Positions 28,607 to 35,163 of a DNA stretch of 42,992 bases are shown piece after piece. Within the stretch, counting starts at the first letter, position 1, and each line of letters begins with the position of its first letter. The notes below the pieces were generated by a model that saw only the letters and a list, made by a program, of their open reading frames with translations, was not told the DNA's origin and searched no databases. Source of the stretch: Candidatus Omnitrophota bacterium (GTDB lineage Bacteria; Omnitrophota; Gorgyraeia; Zapsychrales; Aceulaceae). Location: the NCBI GenBank assembly GCA_029564765.1, contig JAKQPK010000023.1:227640-270631 (forward strand), in the 5' to 3' direction. The position numbers were made by a program, and so were the translations under genes.

Positions 28607-29605
28607 TTATGCGGCCTGCCGTAAATATTTGGCAGCGTCGGCTGGATCCGTCAAAACAACATAAAACCCCGTCCCCCACTCGAATCCGGCCATATTCGTG
28701 AGCTTTGGGATAATTTCAATATGCCAGTGATAGCTATGATGATGCTTGTATTTTGTCGGCGCCGTGTTAATAAAGAAATTATATGACGGGTTGCCCAAAC
28801 AAATCCTGTTACGCCGTAGGATATCTTTTAACATGCACCCTAAATTATATCGCTGTCCATCGTTCATTTCAGCGAAATTCGCCTGATGGAATTTTGGCAT
28901 GATCCATGATTCAAACGAAAAACGAGAAACAAAGGACGCAAAGCACAAGAAATCATCATTTTCAGCGATCACACGCGTGCCGTCCTTCTTCTCTTGGGCT
29001 ATCATATCGCAATAGATGCAACGTTTATTATGTTCAAAATAATTTTGCGAACCTTCTAAAGATTCGGCGACATATTTAGGCACCATAGGAAGAGCGATGA
29101 CCTGGCTATGGGCATGTTCAAGGCTCGCGCCAGCGGCCGAGCCATAATTCTTAAAAATAAGGATATATTCAAAACGCTTGTCCCGCGCTAGATCCCCGGC
29201 ACGGCTACAGTACTTATTAACGACCTGAAGCATCTCCTGCTCATTAAGGTCCGGGCAATCCTTAGTATGGCTAGGCGTCTCGACAATGATCTCATGGGCG
29301 CCAATACCATTACACATATCGAACAAGCCAATCGCGCGTCTTTCGATATCGCCATGAATATCCAGCGCTGGAAAACGATTAGGGACAACACGCACGCTCC
29401 AACCCGGCGCGTTCGGATAACTACCATCAAACCGTACCGCTTCTATCTCCGGAGGTGTTCGGCTTTCTCTGCCAGGACAAAACGGACATACCCCTTCCTG
29501 ATGAAGCTCTCGTGTTTCTTTTTCATAATCCTGAGGCTTGAGCGAATTAAGGGTGTTCACGATAACCCAACGCCCAACGACAGGATCTCGCCGTAGTTCT
29601 CCCAT
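28607..29605 (-). CDS. GalT-like hexose-1-phosphate nucleotidylyltransferase (copy 1)
   Basis: A 332-residue HIT-superfamily protein with the GalT pattern: RRDPVVGRWVIV start, CPFC near residue 40, a catalytic HAHSQ near 164, CIYC near 197 and YHWHIEIIPKL near 293. In E. coli GalT the motif is HPHGQ; here HAHSQ keeps the nucleophilic His. It transfers UMP or a related nucleotide between hexose-1-phosphates; donor and sugar cannot be fixed from sequence. The ATG shares one base with the stop of the paralogue before it. Confidence 0.86.
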   Translation of the reverse strand: MGELRRDPVVGRWVIVNTLNSLKPQDYEKETRELHQEGVCPFCPGRESRTPPEIEAVRFDGSYPNAPGWSVRVVPNRFPALDIHGDIERRAIGLFDMCNGIGAHEIIVETPSHTKDCPDLNEQEMLQVVNKYCSRAGDLARDKRFEYILIFKNYGSAAGASLEHAHSQVIALPMVPKYVAESLEGSQNYFEHNKRCIYCDMIAQEKKDGTRVIAENDDFLCFASFVSRFSFESWIMPKFHQANFAEMNDGQRYNLGCMLKDILRRNRICLGNPSYNFFINTAPTKYKHHHSYHWHIEIIPKLTNMAGFEWGTGFYVVLTDPADAAKYLRQAA

Positions 29606-30645
29606 TAGATCTCAACCTCTCGCAAATATCCAGCGGCATCCTCCGGTGGGATAGGACAAATATAAAACCCTGTTCCTTTTTCAAACCCTGCCGTATGCGT
29701 TAACCGCGGAATGACCTCAATATGCCAATGATAATCCTTTTCGATAGTATCAAACTCGCAGCCTTCTCCTTTTTTACGCGAAAAAGGCCCTGTGTGGATC
29801 ACAAAATGATACGCGGGATCGTTGACGCCTTCTTTCAACCGCGCCAATACTTCCTTAAGGGTTTGCGCCAAGGAAGCTTCTTGGCCTTTCACCCCTTTCC
29901 AGAAATAAGCATGATGCTGCTTGGGCAGGATCCACATTTCAAAAGGAAAACGCGACGCGAATGGAACAAGCGCTATGAAATCATCATTTTCCGTCACAAT
30001 GCGCCGTCGATCGCTGCATTCCTGCTTGATCAGGTCACAAAAAATGCATCGCTCATGGTAATCATAATATTTGCGAGCACCTTTTAATTCCTCGCGGACG
30101 CGCATCGGAATAACAGGAGTAGCGATCAGCTGAGAGTGCGTGTGCGGGATATTCTGATTATCACGGGACCAATTATAATTCTTGTGCGCTAGGACATAAC
30201 GCAAGCTTGTGTCCTTTTCTAATGTCTCGATACGGTCAACATAAGCGTCAATAACATGCTTGATCTGCTTTGCATCCAGATCAGCCATGTTAGCGACGTG
30301 ATCGGGCGATTCTACAACGATCTCGTGGACCCCATGGGCATCCAACACTTCGTAGAGTCCCTGCATTTTAGGCTTAAGGCTGACATCTTCTTTGAAGATC
30401 GGAGCCTTATCTTCGATCACGCGCACACTCCAGCCAGGCATATTGACCTTGGATCCGCTCTTGCGAACAGCGAAGACTTCTCGAGGGGTTTGCATCTCGT
30501 TGCCTTCACAGAATTGGCATTTTTTTAGAGATTGAGGGTCGAGGCTACTTTTGTCCGAAGCGATGAACGTTCCAGGTCTACGCGCCCTACCGGTAGCGAT
30601 AATGACCCAGCGTCCAATAATGGGGTCTTTGCGAAGTTCTTGCAT
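29605..30645 (-). CDS. GalT-like hexose-1-phosphate nucleotidylyltransferase (copy 2)
   Basis: A 346-residue paralogue of the next gene. It has RKDPIIGRWVIIATGRA, CQFC near 43, the catalytic segment IPHTHSQ near 168, CIFC near 203 and YHWHIEVIPRL near 306. An extra loop follows HTGPFSRKKGEG. Both copies keep the Cys pairs and the active His, so both are probably active on different substrates. AAAGGA lies 6 bases before the ATG and an extended -10 promoter is upstream. Confidence 0.86.
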   Translation of the reverse strand: MQELRKDPIIGRWVIIATGRARRPGTFIASDKSSLDPQSLKKCQFCEGNEMQTPREVFAVRKSGSKVNMPGWSVRVIEDKAPIFKEDVSLKPKMQGLYEVLDAHGVHEIVVESPDHVANMADLDAKQIKHVIDAYVDRIETLEKDTSLRYVLAHKNYNWSRDNQNIPHTHSQLIATPVIPMRVREELKGARKYYDYHERCIFCDLIKQECSDRRRIVTENDDFIALVPFASRFPFEMWILPKQHHAYFWKGVKGQEASLAQTLKEVLARLKEGVNDPAYHFVIHTGPFSRKKGEGCEFDTIEKDYHWHIEVIPRLTHTAGFEKGTGFYICPIPPEDAAGYLREVEI

Positions 30646-30725: not shown

Positions 30726-31661
30726 TCAAGAAAATCGGAACCCGACGGACAACTTATGCCCTGCGACAAAACTTTTCGCGTCCATCGAGCGGGACGACTC
30801 CAAATGGACCTTTTTGACAAGCAAGGCGCCACGGCCTGCGCGCACGACAAATCCGTCCTTTAAAACAGCCAATACCTCTCCGGGAACACCTTGCGGATAT
30901 TCTGGAGCGATGATCTTTGTCTGCAGGATCTTTAACGCTTTATCTTCAAAATAGGTATACGCACCCGGCCACGGAATAAGCCCGCGCACAAGATCATGGA
31001 TCGCTATAGCATCCTTTTTCCAGTCGATCCTGCCGATCTCCTTGGAAAGCTTAGGCGCCAGGCTGACGCGCAGGCTGTTTTGCTTCATCAGGCAAAATTC
31101 ACCCTGTTCGATATCCCGCAAAACATCCAGCAAAAAACGCGGGCCTGCGCTCTTCATCTTTTCCTTTAAAATCACAGCGTCATCCATTATGTCAATAGCG
31201 ATGGGTTGCTGCGCGACGATATCCCCCTCGTCCAGCTTGGGACTTATCTTGATCACGGATAACCCTGTTTCGACCTCCCCGTTGATCAAGGCCCAATTAA
31301 TAGGCGCGGCTCCTCGATATTTAGGCAACAAAGAGGCATGAAGATTAACAGCGAAGATCCGAGGGAGCGCGAGGACTTCTGCCGTTAAGATACGGCCATA
31401 AGCGATCACAACGAACAGATCCGCCCCCAATAAACGTAACTTTGTTATAAAATCCTGATCCGCCAAGTCTAACGGCTGTAATACAGCGATATTATTTTTT
31501 ATCGCAAAATCTTTAACAGCTGTTGAGGTGATCTGCAGTTCCCGGCCCTTAGGACGGTCCGGTTGTGTGACGCACGCCAGAACGCTATGGCCAGCACAGC
31601 GCACAATCGCTTCCAAGCATTCTTTTGCCAGATCATCACTTCCAAAAAAAACGATCCTCAT
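30726..31661 (-). CDS. fmt: Methionyl-tRNA formyltransferase
   Basis: A 311-residue Fmt. It has the N-terminal VFFGSDDLA, VVIAYGRIL, the catalytic-loop segment NLHASLLPKYRGAAPINWAL near 105, and a C-terminal domain with WPGAYTYF. It formylates initiator Met-tRNA. It is 3 bases after priA and is the last gene of the long upstream run. Confidence 0.96.
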   Translation of the reverse strand: MRIVFFGSDDLAKECLEAIVRCAGHSVLACVTQPDRPKGRELQITSTAVKDFAIKNNIAVLQPLDLADQDFITKLRLLGADLFVVIAYGRILTAEVLALPRIFAVNLHASLLPKYRGAAPINWALINGEVETGLSVIKISPKLDEGDIVAQQPIAIDIMDDAVILKEKMKSAGPRFLLDVLRDIEQGEFCLMKQNSLRVSLAPKLSKEIGRIDWKKDAIAIHDLVRGLIPWPGAYTYFEDKALKILQTKIIAPEYPQGVPGEVLAVLKDGFVVRAGRGALLVKKVHLESSRSMDAKSFVAGHKLSVGFRFS

Positions 31662-31664
31662 GGA

Positions 31665-33509
31665 TCAGGGCTCCATATTGACCACGGTTGTCGTTGGGCC
31701 TGCTTTTTTAACATGTTTGAGCGTTGTCCGGATAAAACGCATCAAATGGCTCCGTGAACGGCTCTTGGCTACTATAGCAAACCGATACTGATCGCGCAAT
31801 CGCGCTAACGATAAAACTTGCGGCTCGGCAAAGCTGAACCTCTTTCCGCTCTTTTTCATGAACTCCTCATAAAGGCGCTGCGATCGTTGAAAAGCCGCCT
31901 GACTGTTCATCGAGCGCGTAACGATCTGCGCTAAATGAACGAAAGGAGGAAATTGTAGTTCGCGCCGCAACGCAAGCTCTTGCTTATAAAAATCCTTTAT
32001 CTTGTTCTTTAAGAATGTTTTCAAGCAGTCATTATCTTTTAAACGCGCTTGAACATAAAGTGTATCTTGTGTCATCGCTTCGAGATCTGTCAGCAAGGCA
32101 AATGTTTTTTCCGCGGCCTGAAAATCAAGACGGTTGAGCTCAGAATCAACATCCATAACACATGAGATCTGGAACGTCCTTGCGTAAAGCCGTGTAAAGA
32201 TCTGTGTGGCAATAATGATATCACAATGCTCAGACGGCTTATCCGTGTCGTTCGAATAACATTGAACCTTGGCTGACGGAAAAAGTCTCGAAACTTCACT
32301 TTCCAGCTTTTCGATCCCCATCCCGCTAAAATTCACATACGCCCCCTGGCACTGAGGACATGCGGATGGACGATCAGCCTTATATTGACAATGACGGCAG
32401 ACGATCTTTTGCTCTTGATACAAAAAAGTCAAAGGGACATCGCAGCGTGGACACTTCAAGACGTGCTGGCATTTCGCGCAGGAACCAAAACTGCCAAATC
32501 CTTTTTTATTCATTACCAAAAGGACTTTCCCTTTCTGAGCCAATGTTCTCTCGATAGCGCATTGCAAAGGAATTGAAATGGCCTGATTCTTGCGGTATTT
32601 ATAATTGGACAGATCGATCAGTTGCTTGGTCGGTGCGTGCGCCCTAGATCGTACCTGCGTGACGGCTATCTTTTCCTTCTGGACCATATGCTGAAGTTGC
32701 ACGCTCACAAAGCGATTAATGAAGATCAAAGAAATATTCTCAGATCTCGCACGCAGCAACACTGCCTGACGGGCATGATAAAAAGGTGTTTGATCCTGCT
32801 TGTACGAAAAATTGTTCTCCTCCAGCATGATGATCAATCCTAATCGTTGAGCCGGCGCAAAGATCGCAGATCGGCTCCCGAGGACAAAGCAACATTTTCC
32901 TTCCTGGATAGCGATCCAGTCCCTTTCCTGGTCTTTGCTGCTTGCCTCCTTATCAAAGATCGCCAAAGGCCGCGCGAATCTTTTTTGGACCTGCTGCGCG
33001 AGGTCAGGAATATGATCGTTTTCCGGCACAATGATCATGACCTGCTGATTCTTTTCGATCGCTGCCGCAATAGGCTCTGAGACGGCCGGCCAAAAACTAC
33101 AAAGCGATTCATCGCGGATGACCATTGTGCGCGCCAGCGTATCGTTGCGCTGTGAGGTGCCGATAGAAAAATCGATCCCTTTTTTACGCTTTTTGAAATT
33201 AGAAGGCAAGAATGTGGCGATCGCTTCGCCCAGCGAGCAATAATACTCCTGAGAAAAATCTTTGGCATATTGAAGCATCGTCATGGAGACGACAGGGTTC
33301 TGATCCAAAACTTTTAGGATAGACTTGAGCTGAGGGAATGCACTCTCGTCCTTGAGCGCGACAACATAGCCGATCAATGTCTTAACATGGAAAGGCGCCA
33401 AGACCCTGTGGCCGACCTGGATCGAAGGCTGAAGCATCTGTGGGATATCATAATCAAAAGGCCCTTCCACGGGAAGATCAAAAACAACTTGAGCAACGGA
33501 ATTTTTCAT
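31665..33509 (-). CDS. priA: PriA-like primosomal protein with degenerate helicase motifs
   Basis: A protein of about 614 residues homologous to PriA but shorter than the usual 730 or so. It keeps the N-terminal 3'-binding domain (VFDLPVEGPFDY), IVPEN and the zinc-binding region with four CxxC pairs (CAKC, CPRC, CRHC, CPQC, about 344-389). The ATPase is lost: the GVTGSGKTE Walker A is replaced by RDESLCSFW with no Lys; DEEH is LEENN; GSATPS is FINRF; and VAGRAGR is LEAMTQD. The reading frame is intact, so it is not a simple pseudogene. It may act only as a DNA-binding loader. The ATG at 33509 is chosen over a TTG six codons upstream. It follows the GT28-type gene and precedes fmt. Confidence 0.85.
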   Translation of the reverse strand: MKNSVAQVVFDLPVEGPFDYDIPQMLQPSIQVGHRVLAPFHVKTLIGYVVALKDESAFPQLKSILKVLDQNPVVSMTMLQYAKDFSQEYYCSLGEAIATFLPSNFKKRKKGIDFSIGTSQRNDTLARTMVIRDESLCSFWPAVSEPIAAAIEKNQQVMIIVPENDHIPDLAQQVQKRFARPLAIFDKEASSKDQERDWIAIQEGKCCFVLGSRSAIFAPAQRLGLIIMLEENNFSYKQDQTPFYHARQAVLLRARSENISLIFINRFVSVQLQHMVQKEKIAVTQVRSRAHAPTKQLIDLSNYKYRKNQAISIPLQCAIERTLAQKGKVLLVMNKKGFGSFGSCAKCQHVLKCPRCDVPLTFLYQEQKIVCRHCQYKADRPSACPQCQGAYVNFSGMGIEKLESEVSRLFPSAKVQCYSNDTDKPSEHCDIIIATQIFTRLYARTFQISCVMDVDSELNRLDFQAAEKTFALLTDLEAMTQDTLYVQARLKDNDCLKTFLKNKIKDFYKQELALRRELQFPPFVHLAQIVTRSMNSQAAFQRSQRLYEEFMKKSGKRFSFAEPQVLSLARLRDQYRFAIVAKSRSRSHLMRFIRTTLKHVKKAGPTTTVVNMEP

Positions 33510-33530
33510 GAATGTTGAGAATACCAAGGG

Positions 33531-34616
33531 TTACGAGATCAGCTTGATGATATCACAAACAGAATGGGGACGGGCTATTTTTTCAATATTGGTTTTAGCG
33601 TTCTTAAGGTACATGGGGTCATTGCTCAACTTGTGGATCTCTGCCGCGATCCCTTCGATCGAAAGACCGCTTGCGCCAACACCAAATTCCTGCAAGACCT
33701 TGATATTATTCGTTTCCTGCCCAGGGATAGCGCTAAAAAATATCAACGGCAAGCCAACAGCGAGCGCCTCAGAGATGGAAAGCCCACCGGGTTTCGTGAT
33801 CAAAGCATCAGCCGCCATCATATATTCCTGCATGTTGTTGATAAAACCGCAGATCTTGGCGTTAGGAAACTGTTGCGCTGAAAGCGTGGTGCACAGTTTC
33901 TGATTATGCCCGCAGACGACTACGCACTGGATATCTGAAAGCTGACGGACGATGTCTTCGATGGGGCCAATACCAAAAGAGCCCGTGGCGATAAGGACTG
34001 TGAACATATCTGGCTTGAGCCCCAAGCGAGAACGCAAGGAACCTTTTTCATAAGAGGTCAAAAATTTCTCATCGACCGGAATGCCAGTGACAGCGATCTT
34101 CTCTTCGTCCACGCCCAAAGAAAGAAGTTTGTTCTTTGTGTACGCGCAAGCAACCGCATAATGATCCACATGCTGGCCCAGCCAAATGCTATGCGCGTCA
34201 TAATCTGTGACCACGCAGATCAGCTTAGAGGTGATCTTTTTCTCTCCCTTCAAGGCCGAAACGACTTCCGTTGAGAAAAAGTGGGTCGTGATCACATAGT
34301 CAAAATTCTCTTGCGTAAGGAATGCTTCGAATCTCCTGCCGTTAATATGATTAAAGACCCGCCGCACGACCTGCACCAATGGCAAAAGTAAGCGAATATC
34401 CGCCAACCAGAAGAAAAATGCCCATACCAAAGATAAATGTGAGATCAAGATGATGTAGGTCTTGCGATAAAGGTCTTTGTAGAAAGGATTCGTATGGTCG
34501 AGGACATCAACGCAGCGCACATCATGAGTGGTGTGCTTCTTGAGGCCGTTAAAAACGGCTTCAGCCGCTTTGCTATGACCGGCGCCGGCGCTGGCGTGGA
34601 CTATGAGTATTTTCAT
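33531..34616 (-). CDS. UgtP/MGD-like lipid glycosyltransferase (GT28 type)
   Basis: A 361-residue GT-B enzyme. It has ILIVHASAGAGHSKAAEAV at the start, the acceptor-side TDYDAHSIWLG near 136 and the donor-site TKPGGLSISEALAVGLPLIF near 278. This is the pattern of diacylglycerol glucosyl- or galactosyltransferases (UgtP, MGD). It probably acts at the inner-membrane face to make a glycolipid. The ATG at 34616 is chosen because a TTG upstream lies in the gmhB end; overlap with gmhB is 44 bases. Confidence 0.86.
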   Translation of the reverse strand: MKILIVHASAGAGHSKAAEAVFNGLKKHTTHDVRCVDVLDHTNPFYKDLYRKTYIILISHLSLVWAFFFWLADIRLLLPLVQVVRRVFNHINGRRFEAFLTQENFDYVITTHFFSTEVVSALKGEKKITSKLICVVTDYDAHSIWLGQHVDHYAVACAYTKNKLLSLGVDEEKIAVTGIPVDEKFLTSYEKGSLRSRLGLKPDMFTVLIATGSFGIGPIEDIVRQLSDIQCVVVCGHNQKLCTTLSAQQFPNAKICGFINNMQEYMMAADALITKPGGLSISEALAVGLPLIFFSAIPGQETNNIKVLQEFGVGASGLSIEGIAAEIHKLSNDPMYLKNAKTNIEKIARPHSVCDIIKLIS

Positions 34617-35163
34617 TGATAATGATGTGGGTTGCCTCAACTATGGTTTTGGCGATAAGATCTGGCTTTACGCGCCATGACTTGACGACATCAGCTGTCG
34701 TATTTTTTCCTGAAAGGACAAAAATAGTTTTGCATTTGGCATTGTGACCTGCCTCAATATCCGTCCGGTCGTCACCGACAAAATACGCGTAGCGTGCCTT
34801 GGCTAATGGTTTCTTCATCAGCTGCATCGCACGTTTAACGGATCCGATGCGGGGTTTTCGACAATCGCAATCAGCATCTGAGCGATGTGTGCAATAAAAC
34901 GCCCTGTTGATCCTCCCGCCTGCCTGGCGGATATGACGCAGCATGTAGTTATTGATACGTCGCAGCTTGTCTCGCGAATAAATACCTTTCCCAATACCGG
35001 CTTGATTCGAAACAATAAAAATAGAATAACCATGACGGGTCAGCTGAACGATAGAAGCAATGGCTCCTGGCAAAAATTTAAATTCCTTGACCTTGGTCAC
35101 ATAATTCCCATGGCCTGGAAATTGATTGATGACACCGTCTCGATCAAAAAAAACGATCTTCAT
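34573..35163 (-). CDS. gmhB: D-glycero-D-manno-heptose-1,7-bisphosphate phosphatase-like HAD protein
   Basis: A 196-residue HAD-IIIA phosphatase. Nucleophile and acid Asp are D7 and D9 in FFDRDGVIN; SNQAGIGKG near 52 and GDDRTD near 130 follow. The zinc-loop segment DADCDCRKP near 97 is typical of GmhB. With hddA and hddC nearby it fits the heptose pathway. HisB-N-type activity is a less likely alternative. The start overlaps the WaaE-like gene by 4 bases (ATGA). The basic C-terminal tail (PRQRRRRS) is unusual. Confidence 0.86.
   Translation of the reverse strand: MKIVFFDRDGVINQFPGHGNYVTKVKEFKFLPGAIASIVQLTRHGYSIFIVSNQAGIGKGIYSRDKLRRINNYMLRHIRQAGGRINRAFYCTHRSDADCDCRKPRIGSVKRAMQLMKKPLAKARYAYFVGDDRTDIEAGHNAKCKTIFVLSGKNTTADVVKSWRVKPDLIAKTIVEATHIIINENTHSPRQRRRRS

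What the first reader, a model, noticed from the sequence alone, without database searches (positions are those of the whole stretch)
31665..33509. PriA homologue that has lost its helicase/ATPase motifs but kept an intact frame and zinc site
Seen: the segment that should be GVTGSGKTE is RDESLCSFW, DEEH is LEENN, GSATPS is FINRF and the RecG-like VAGRAGR is LEAMTQD, while all eight zinc cysteines, the N-terminal DNA-binding domain and flanking motifs such as YKQ and FYHAR remain. The protein is about 110 residues shorter than usual. Known: actinobacterial PriA is annotated as lacking helicase motifs. Inference: a second, perhaps independent, lineage uses PriA as a non-motor replication-restart loader.
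Basis: partly seen in the sequence, partly recalled or inferred. Interest (0 to 1): 0.8.

Follow-up and report, generated by a model that had tools for sequence, protein, structure and literature searches.

The report
Motor-less PriA across many Omnitrophota
In a large part of the uncultured bacterial phylum Omnitrophota, PriA, the protein that restarts stalled DNA replication, has lost every part of its ATP-driven motor yet is still kept by selection with its DNA-binding and usually its zinc parts intact, so it probably works there as a passive fork-recognition and loading platform.

Summary
Window 31665-33509 (-) encodes the only PriA of a 98%-complete Omnitrophota genome (kin of Ca. Aceula). 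Motifs I, II, III, V and VI of the helicase are erased, while the 3'-end-binding domain, aromatic-rich loop, eight zinc cysteines and C-terminal domain remain. It is neither an error nor a decaying copy. All examined relatives in its order, and about 20 families in all, share the loss. dN/dS is 0.10-0.20. The gene sits at the same mgdg-priA-fmt locus as motor-bearing PriA in sister families, and AlphaFold predicts a full PriA fold (pLDDT 95). Four or five lineages of the phylum are motor-less; point-estimate trees favour separate losses, but an AU test does not firmly reject a single one (p=0.06). Some sublineages also lost the zinc region. The missing winged helix is not part of the loss, because motor-bearing Omnitrophota PriA lacks it too. 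A motor-less PriA is known (Deinococcus, shown biochemically), so this is a new, widespread and more extreme variant. Most likely function, not tested here: an ATP-independent fork-recognition and DnaB-loading platform. Unexpected side finding: the same clade has replaced the universal Pro-Phe tip of its chromosomal SSB.

The parts
31665..33509 (-). priA, motor-less PriA of 614 aa from ATG (620 aa to 33527 if the in-frame TTG start is used)
33204..33491 (-). 3'-DNA-binding domain (3'BD); F-D-Y of the 3'-end pocket at 33450-33464
   Evidence: Pfam PF17764 2.3e-23; F16 and D17 (E. coli numbering) kept in 66/66 big-clade sequences
33090..33116 (-). former motif I / Walker A, now RDESLCSFW (P-loop erased)
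32811..32825 (-). former motif II / Walker B (DEEH), now LEENN
32769..32807 (-). YKQ and aromatic-rich loop SYKQDQTPFYHAR, retained
   Evidence: P333 100%, Y335 95%, Y327 93% kept in the clade
32709..32723 (-). former motif III (GSATP), now FINRF
32349..32480 (-). cysteine-rich zinc region, eight cysteines retained
   Evidence: PF18319 3.7e-6; Cys 99-100% among zinc-bearing members of 116 sequences
32187..32219 (-). former motif V (IGTQMLAKG), now IATQIFTRL
32064..32084 (-). former motif VI (VAGRAGR), now LEAMTQD with a short deletion
31698..31946 (-). PriA C-terminal domain, retained
   Evidence: Pfam PF18074 9e-10
30726..31661 (-). fmt (methionyl-tRNA formyltransferase), 3 bp downstream of priA
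   Evidence: Pfam; priA-fmt adjacency shared by motor-bearing and motor-less loci
33531..34640 (-). MGDG-synthase-like glycosyltransferase directly upstream, conserved neighbour
   Evidence: Pfam PF06925

Best explanation
This is the orthologous, functional PriA of the organism, descended in place from a motor-bearing PriA, that has become a pseudohelicase. Shown by sequence: ATP-binding and hydrolysis motifs I, II, III, V and VI are gone, the gene is under purifying selection across much of the phylum, and the fork-reading parts and fold are conserved. Inferred: PriA binds a stalled fork or D-loop through the 3'-end pocket of the 3'BD and the aromatic-rich loop at the junction, holds single-stranded DNA in the two inert RecA lobes, and offers the zinc region and C-terminal domain as a docking surface that brings DnaB (with the DciA-type loader these genomes encode) to the lagging-strand template. 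It does so without ATP, so it cannot unwind the lagging arm. It would act on forks or D-loops that already expose single-stranded lagging template, or depend on another helicase or nuclease to expose it.
For: Family membership and domains. Only PriA in the genome. Motif loss in every examined relative of the order and in about 78 sequences over about 24 families. dN/dS 0.10-0.20. Same mgdg-priA-fmt locus as motor-bearing PriA. Selective retention in 66 big-clade sequences: F16, D17 and Y18 100%, G302 96%, R304 86%, F308 95%, E322 96%, P333 100%, Y335 95%, against K230 4%, T231 0%, R584 1%, R587 3%; eight Cys 99-100% where the zinc region is present. AlphaFold pLDDT 95, pTM 0.93, best PDB match E. 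coli PriA on a fork (8fak, TM 0.89), next the winged-helix-deleted E. coli PriA (6dcr). Literature: E. coli PriA ATPase is dispensable for PriA-PriB restart in vivo and for DnaB reloading in vitro (PMC10175261); D. radiodurans PriA hydrolyses no ATP, unwinds no DNA, binds forks and binds DnaB (PMC4504706); Asp17 is crucial for 3'-end recognition (PMC4129139). DciA is present in the window genome.
Against: No biochemistry exists for any Omnitrophota PriA. The zinc-region docking step cannot be general, since f51, part of f7 and one f4 member lost that region. DnaB or DciA contact was not tested. Residual ATP binding by a changed pocket cannot be excluded from sequence.
Confidence: 0.78

Rival explanations
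1. The gene is a decaying pseudogene, or the motifs were destroyed by assembly error.
For: Every motor motif is degraded, and the family evolves faster than motor-bearing PriA: mean pairwise identity in lobe 1 is 0.29 against 0.61.
Against: Open frames of 560-680 aa across dozens of unrelated assemblies. dN/dS 0.10-0.20. Zinc cysteines 99-100% kept. Confident fold.
Confidence: 0.02
2. PriA no longer restarts replication but has been recruited to another DNA task, for example as a structure-specific anchor or regulator of a separate translocase such as RecG, or a protector of 3' ends.
For: Loss of motor plus, in sublineages, of the zinc region. Clade-specific residues at the old P-loop (Arg 75%, Trp 62%) and at other sites suggest new contacts. 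The SSB tail that PriA normally docks on is rewritten in the same clade.
Against: Fork-reading residues are the most conserved part. No other restart initiator was identified. D. radiodurans PriA keeps DNA and DnaB binding without a motor (PMC4504706). RecG is present with or without the PriA motor.
Confidence: 0.13
3. It is a slow or atypical motor that still binds and uses ATP through substituted residues.
For: A glutamate of the former DEEH (E322) is 96% conserved, and both RecA-like lobes are predicted intact.
Against: The P-loop Lys and Thr and both motif VI arginines are absent in 96-100% of sequences, and the Q-motif segment is deleted. In E. coli, Lys230 substitution alone abolishes ATPase (PMC4504706).
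Confidence: 0.04

Closest known systems
Deinococcus radiodurans PriA pseudohelicase (Deinococcus-Thermus PriA; PMC4504706)
   Same: PriA orthologue with ruined Walker A and B motifs; DNA-binding domain, zinc region and fold type retained; in a bacterium without PriB and DnaT.
   Different: Deinococcus keeps a recognisable P-loop (Lys to Arg). Here the P-loop, Q motif and motifs V and VI are erased or deleted, the trait spans many families, and some members also lost the zinc region.
Actinobacterial PriA (NCBIfam PRK14873 models)
   Different: Window protein scores at most 193 bits with these models against 344 with general PriA models, so it is not of that lineage.
E. coli / K. pneumoniae PriA, motor-bearing
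   Same: Same domain order apart from the winged helix; predicted structure matches at TM 0.89; FDY pocket, aromatic-rich loop, eight cysteines, CTD.
   Different: No helicase motifs I-III, V, VI; no winged helix.
Motor-bearing PriA of sister Omnitrophota families (L035-L064)
   Same: Same locus mgdg-priA-fmt; same winged-helix-less architecture; eight cysteines.
   Different: They keep GxTxSGKTE, DEEH, GSATPS and GRAGR; position 17 is T/H/Q/S instead of the invariant Asp of the motor-less clade.

Membership tests
PriA (primosomal protein N', TIGR00595) | Score above the curated family cut-off | tested here: met
   306 bits against 230.35
PriA (primosomal protein N', TIGR00595) | N-terminal 3'BD with 3'-end pocket | tested here: met
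   PF17764 2.3e-23; F16 and D17 conserved
PriA (primosomal protein N', TIGR00595) | Cysteine-rich region with eight zinc ligands | tested here: met
   Eight Cys at residues 350, 353, 359, 362, 377, 380, 390, 393; lost in f51, part of f7 and L031
PriA (primosomal protein N', TIGR00595) | C-terminal domain and overall fold | tested here: met
   PF18074 9e-10; TM 0.89 to 8fak chain H
PriA (primosomal protein N', TIGR00595) | Orthologous locus | tested here: met
   mgdg-priA-fmt shared with motor-bearing PriA loci
SF2 helicase (active PriA helicase) | Motifs I, II, III, V, VI for ATP binding and hydrolysis | tested here: not met
PriA pseudohelicase (Deinococcus type) | Walker A/B ruined in an otherwise conserved PriA | tested here: met
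PriA pseudohelicase (Deinococcus type) | No ATPase and no unwinding, but fork and DnaB binding | not testable with these tools
   needs purified protein; shown only for D. radiodurans (PMC4504706)
Actinobacterial PriA (PRK14873) | Best match among PriA models | tested here: not met
   at most 193 bits against 344 for PRK05580.1-3

The most novel reading that the evidence does not exclude
In a broad Omnitrophota clade the fork-restart interface has been rebuilt as a whole. PriA became a pure DNA-structure-reading scaffold, in some branches even without its zinc region, with a new conserved element at the dead ATP site. At the same time the SSB C-terminal tip that recruits PriA and many repair proteins elsewhere changed from acidic-Pro-Phe to other acidic ends; in the window's order it is D-(I/V/M)-(A/S/T)-W-(D/E)-E. 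This would be a different SSB docking code together with ATP-free restart.
Probability: 0.3. Interest if true: 0.8.

Novelty: new variant of a known kind. Interest (0 to 1): 0.6.

Why it matters
PriA's motor is dispensable in E. coli in the laboratory, yet it is conserved in nearly all bacteria, and why is an open question. A phylum in which motor-bearing and motor-less PriA occupy the same locus in sister lineages, probably with several losses, gives a natural comparison of what the motor is for and what the minimal restart protein is. Variants that have also lost the zinc region narrow the minimum further. The accompanying change of the SSB tip in the main clade challenges the assumption that the Pro-Phe tip is a universal bacterial docking code.

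Tried and rejected
Pseudogene or error: rejected. Second intact PriA: none found (the other hits, on 632 and 677 aa frames, are weak partial matches that I take for other helicases). Winged-helix loss as part of motor loss: rejected, since motor-bearing relatives lack it too. Loss of RecG or gain of a RecG-type helper as a correlate: rejected, RecG is found in 60 of 61 genomes of both kinds. DciA divergence as a correlate: DciA is weak or undetected in much of the main clade but normal in the other motor-less lineages, so it looks like a clade effect. SSB-tail change caused by motor loss: rejected for the same reason. K. pneumoniae SSB-pocket residues (Arg697 and others): not conserved even in motor-bearing Omnitrophota, uninformative. 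A single loss in the phylum: disfavoured (log-likelihood 64 lower), but AU p=0.06, and two partial groupings were not rejected (p=0.41 and 0.33), so not excluded. Two further AU tests did not finish.

Full report
WHAT IS THERE. The ORF at 31665-33509 (-) (614 aa from ATG; 620 aa from an upstream in-frame TTG at 33527) is PriA: TIGR00595 306 bits over a cut-off of 230, Pfam 3'BD 2e-23, PriA C-terminal domain 9e-10, zinc ribbon 4e-6, but no Pfam helicase domain. Aligned with E. coli PriA, motif I GVTGSGKTE is DESLCSFWP, motif II DEEHD is LEENN, motif III GSATPALE is INRFVSVQ, motif V GTQMLAKG is ATQIFTRL and motif VI GRAGRAG is AMTQD plus a gap. The eight zinc cysteines, YKQ and FYHAR are intact. 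It lies 3 bp upstream of fmt and just downstream of an MGDG-synthase-like gene.

WHO HAS IT. The window genome (98% complete) has one PriA only. Named relatives are Candidatus Omnitrophota, the nearest being Ca. Aceula. In the same order 33 of 35 genomes matched, and all ~30 aligned proteins lack the motifs in open frames. In 236 genomes of the phylum, PriA scores are bimodal: 94 genomes (my count from the listing) at 560-686 bits, then, apart from one 433-aa fragment, nothing down to 444 bits. I read the motifs in 30 of the high-scoring ones (all intact) and in about 78 of the lower-scoring, non-fragment ones from about 24 families (all lost). Unread genomes are classified by score only. No motor-less genome has a second, better PriA.

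IT IS SELECTED, NOT DECAYING. Ten pairs of motor-less genes give dN/dS 0.10-0.20; motor-bearing pairs give 0.06-0.13 (Nei-Gojobori; several dS values are near 1, so these are approximate). The gene stands at the same locus (mgdg-priA-fmt, often galT) in motor-bearing and motor-less genomes, so it is the same gene changed in place.

WHAT WAS KEPT. In 66 sequences of the main clade: Walker Lys 4%, Thr 0%, motif VI Arg 1% and 3%; but F16, D17 and Y18 of the 3'-end pocket 100%, G302/R304/F308 of motif Ib 96/86/95%, Pro and Tyr of the aromatic-rich loop 100/95%, and E322 of former DEEH 96%. Asp17, crucial for 3'-end recognition in E. coli (PMC4129139), is invariant here, whereas motor-bearing Omnitrophota carry T/H/Q/S. 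The eight cysteines are 99-100% where present, but f51, part of f7 and L031 lost the zinc region. At the dead P-loop an Arg (75%) and Trp (62%) have become common (the window has Phe-Trp). AlphaFold gives pLDDT 95, pTM 0.93 for the window protein and 91, 0.90 for a zinc-less one. The best PDB matches are E. coli PriA on a fork (TM 0.89) and the winged-helix deletion of E. coli PriA. The winged helix is missing in motor-bearing Omnitrophota too: the linker is 119 aa in E. coli, 51-60 in motor-bearing, and median 28 in motor-less ones.

HOW OFTEN IT AROSE. On an RpoB+RpoC tree of 60 genomes plus E. coli the motor-less state takes five changes with FastTree and with IQ-TREE: one clade of about 20 families (100% support, which also shares an ~80-residue RpoB deletion), plus f18, f31/f44, f43 and f51. 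In IQ-TREE f51 is sister to the large clade and may share its loss. PriA's own tree without motif columns agrees: the large clade is 100%, and f43, f44 and f51 fall with motor-bearing PriA. An AU test of one single clade gives p=0.06, and partial groupings are not rejected, so several losses are favoured but not proven. Deep relations in this phylum are known to be unstable (PMC10066038).

MECHANISM. PriA without ATPase is not absurd: in E. coli ATPase is not needed for the PriA-PriB pathway, and K230A PriA is used for DnaB reloading in vitro (PMC10175261). D. radiodurans PriA has neither ATPase nor unwinding but binds forks and DnaB (PMC4504706). The anatomy here fits the same role: read the nascent 3' end and the junction, hold single-stranded DNA, present a docking surface, and let DnaB with a DciA-type loader (present in the window genome) assemble. 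Shown: motif loss, selection, conserved DNA-reading residues and predicted fold. Inferred: fork binding, DnaB loading, absence of ATPase.

NEIGHBOURING FINDING. The chromosomal SSB, normally ending in an acidic Pro-Phe tip used as a docking site for PriA, RecG and others, has lost it in 39 of 41 genomes of the main motor-less clade (exceptions: both f13 genomes). It is kept in 28 of 29 motor-bearing genomes (exception G109, which appears as two loci) and in 6 of 6 genomes of the other motor-less lineages. In the window's order the new end is PED(I/V/M)(A/S/T)W(D/E)E, and a second SSB in two genomes has taken the same ending. Because the other motor-less lineages keep Pro-Phe, this is a clade trait rather than a consequence of motor loss. 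Targeted literature searches found no description of it, which is not proof of absence.

VERDICT. It is a new, unusually widespread and extreme variant of a known kind (PriA pseudohelicase).

Noticed in passing
L263 (window genome G000:C20:81327-81734) and L265-L346: Chromosomal SSB of the main motor-less clade lacks the Pro-Phe C-terminal tip in 39/41 genomes, with new acidic Trp-containing ends in the window's order (...PEDIAWDE...KPENISWDEEENVA in the window genome). Motor-bearing and the other motor-less lineages keep Pro-Phe.
   Followed up: partly
RpoB of window genome G000:C61:98032-101427 and clade: RpoB of the main motor-less clade lacks about 80 residues (model positions ~219-297), a marker shared by about 20 families.
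   Followed up: partly
L220 (G184:C22:32000-41600): RpoB and RpoC lie in one 2590-codon open frame, a natural fusion in family f42.
   Followed up: no
G180:C2:71997-75263: rpoB lies in a reported 25,093-codon frame without stops; masked sequence or a giant frame, not examined.
   Followed up: no
window genome G000: No canonical RecG found (best 370 bits, a partial match to a 632 aa frame), while the other 60 genomes have one; may be an assembly gap.
   Followed up: no
L111 (G106:C78), G061:C1, G114, G117, G071, G137: f13 PriA is extremely divergent yet keeps eight cysteines; several fairly complete genomes give no convincing PriA at all.
   Followed up: partly
PF05258 matches: The helicase-loader family DciA is weak or undetected in much of the main motor-less clade but normal elsewhere, suggesting fast evolution there.
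   Followed up: partly
window 28607-30645: Two tandem galactose-1-phosphate uridylyltransferase-like genes downstream of fmt, often present as a pair in relatives.
   Followed up: no
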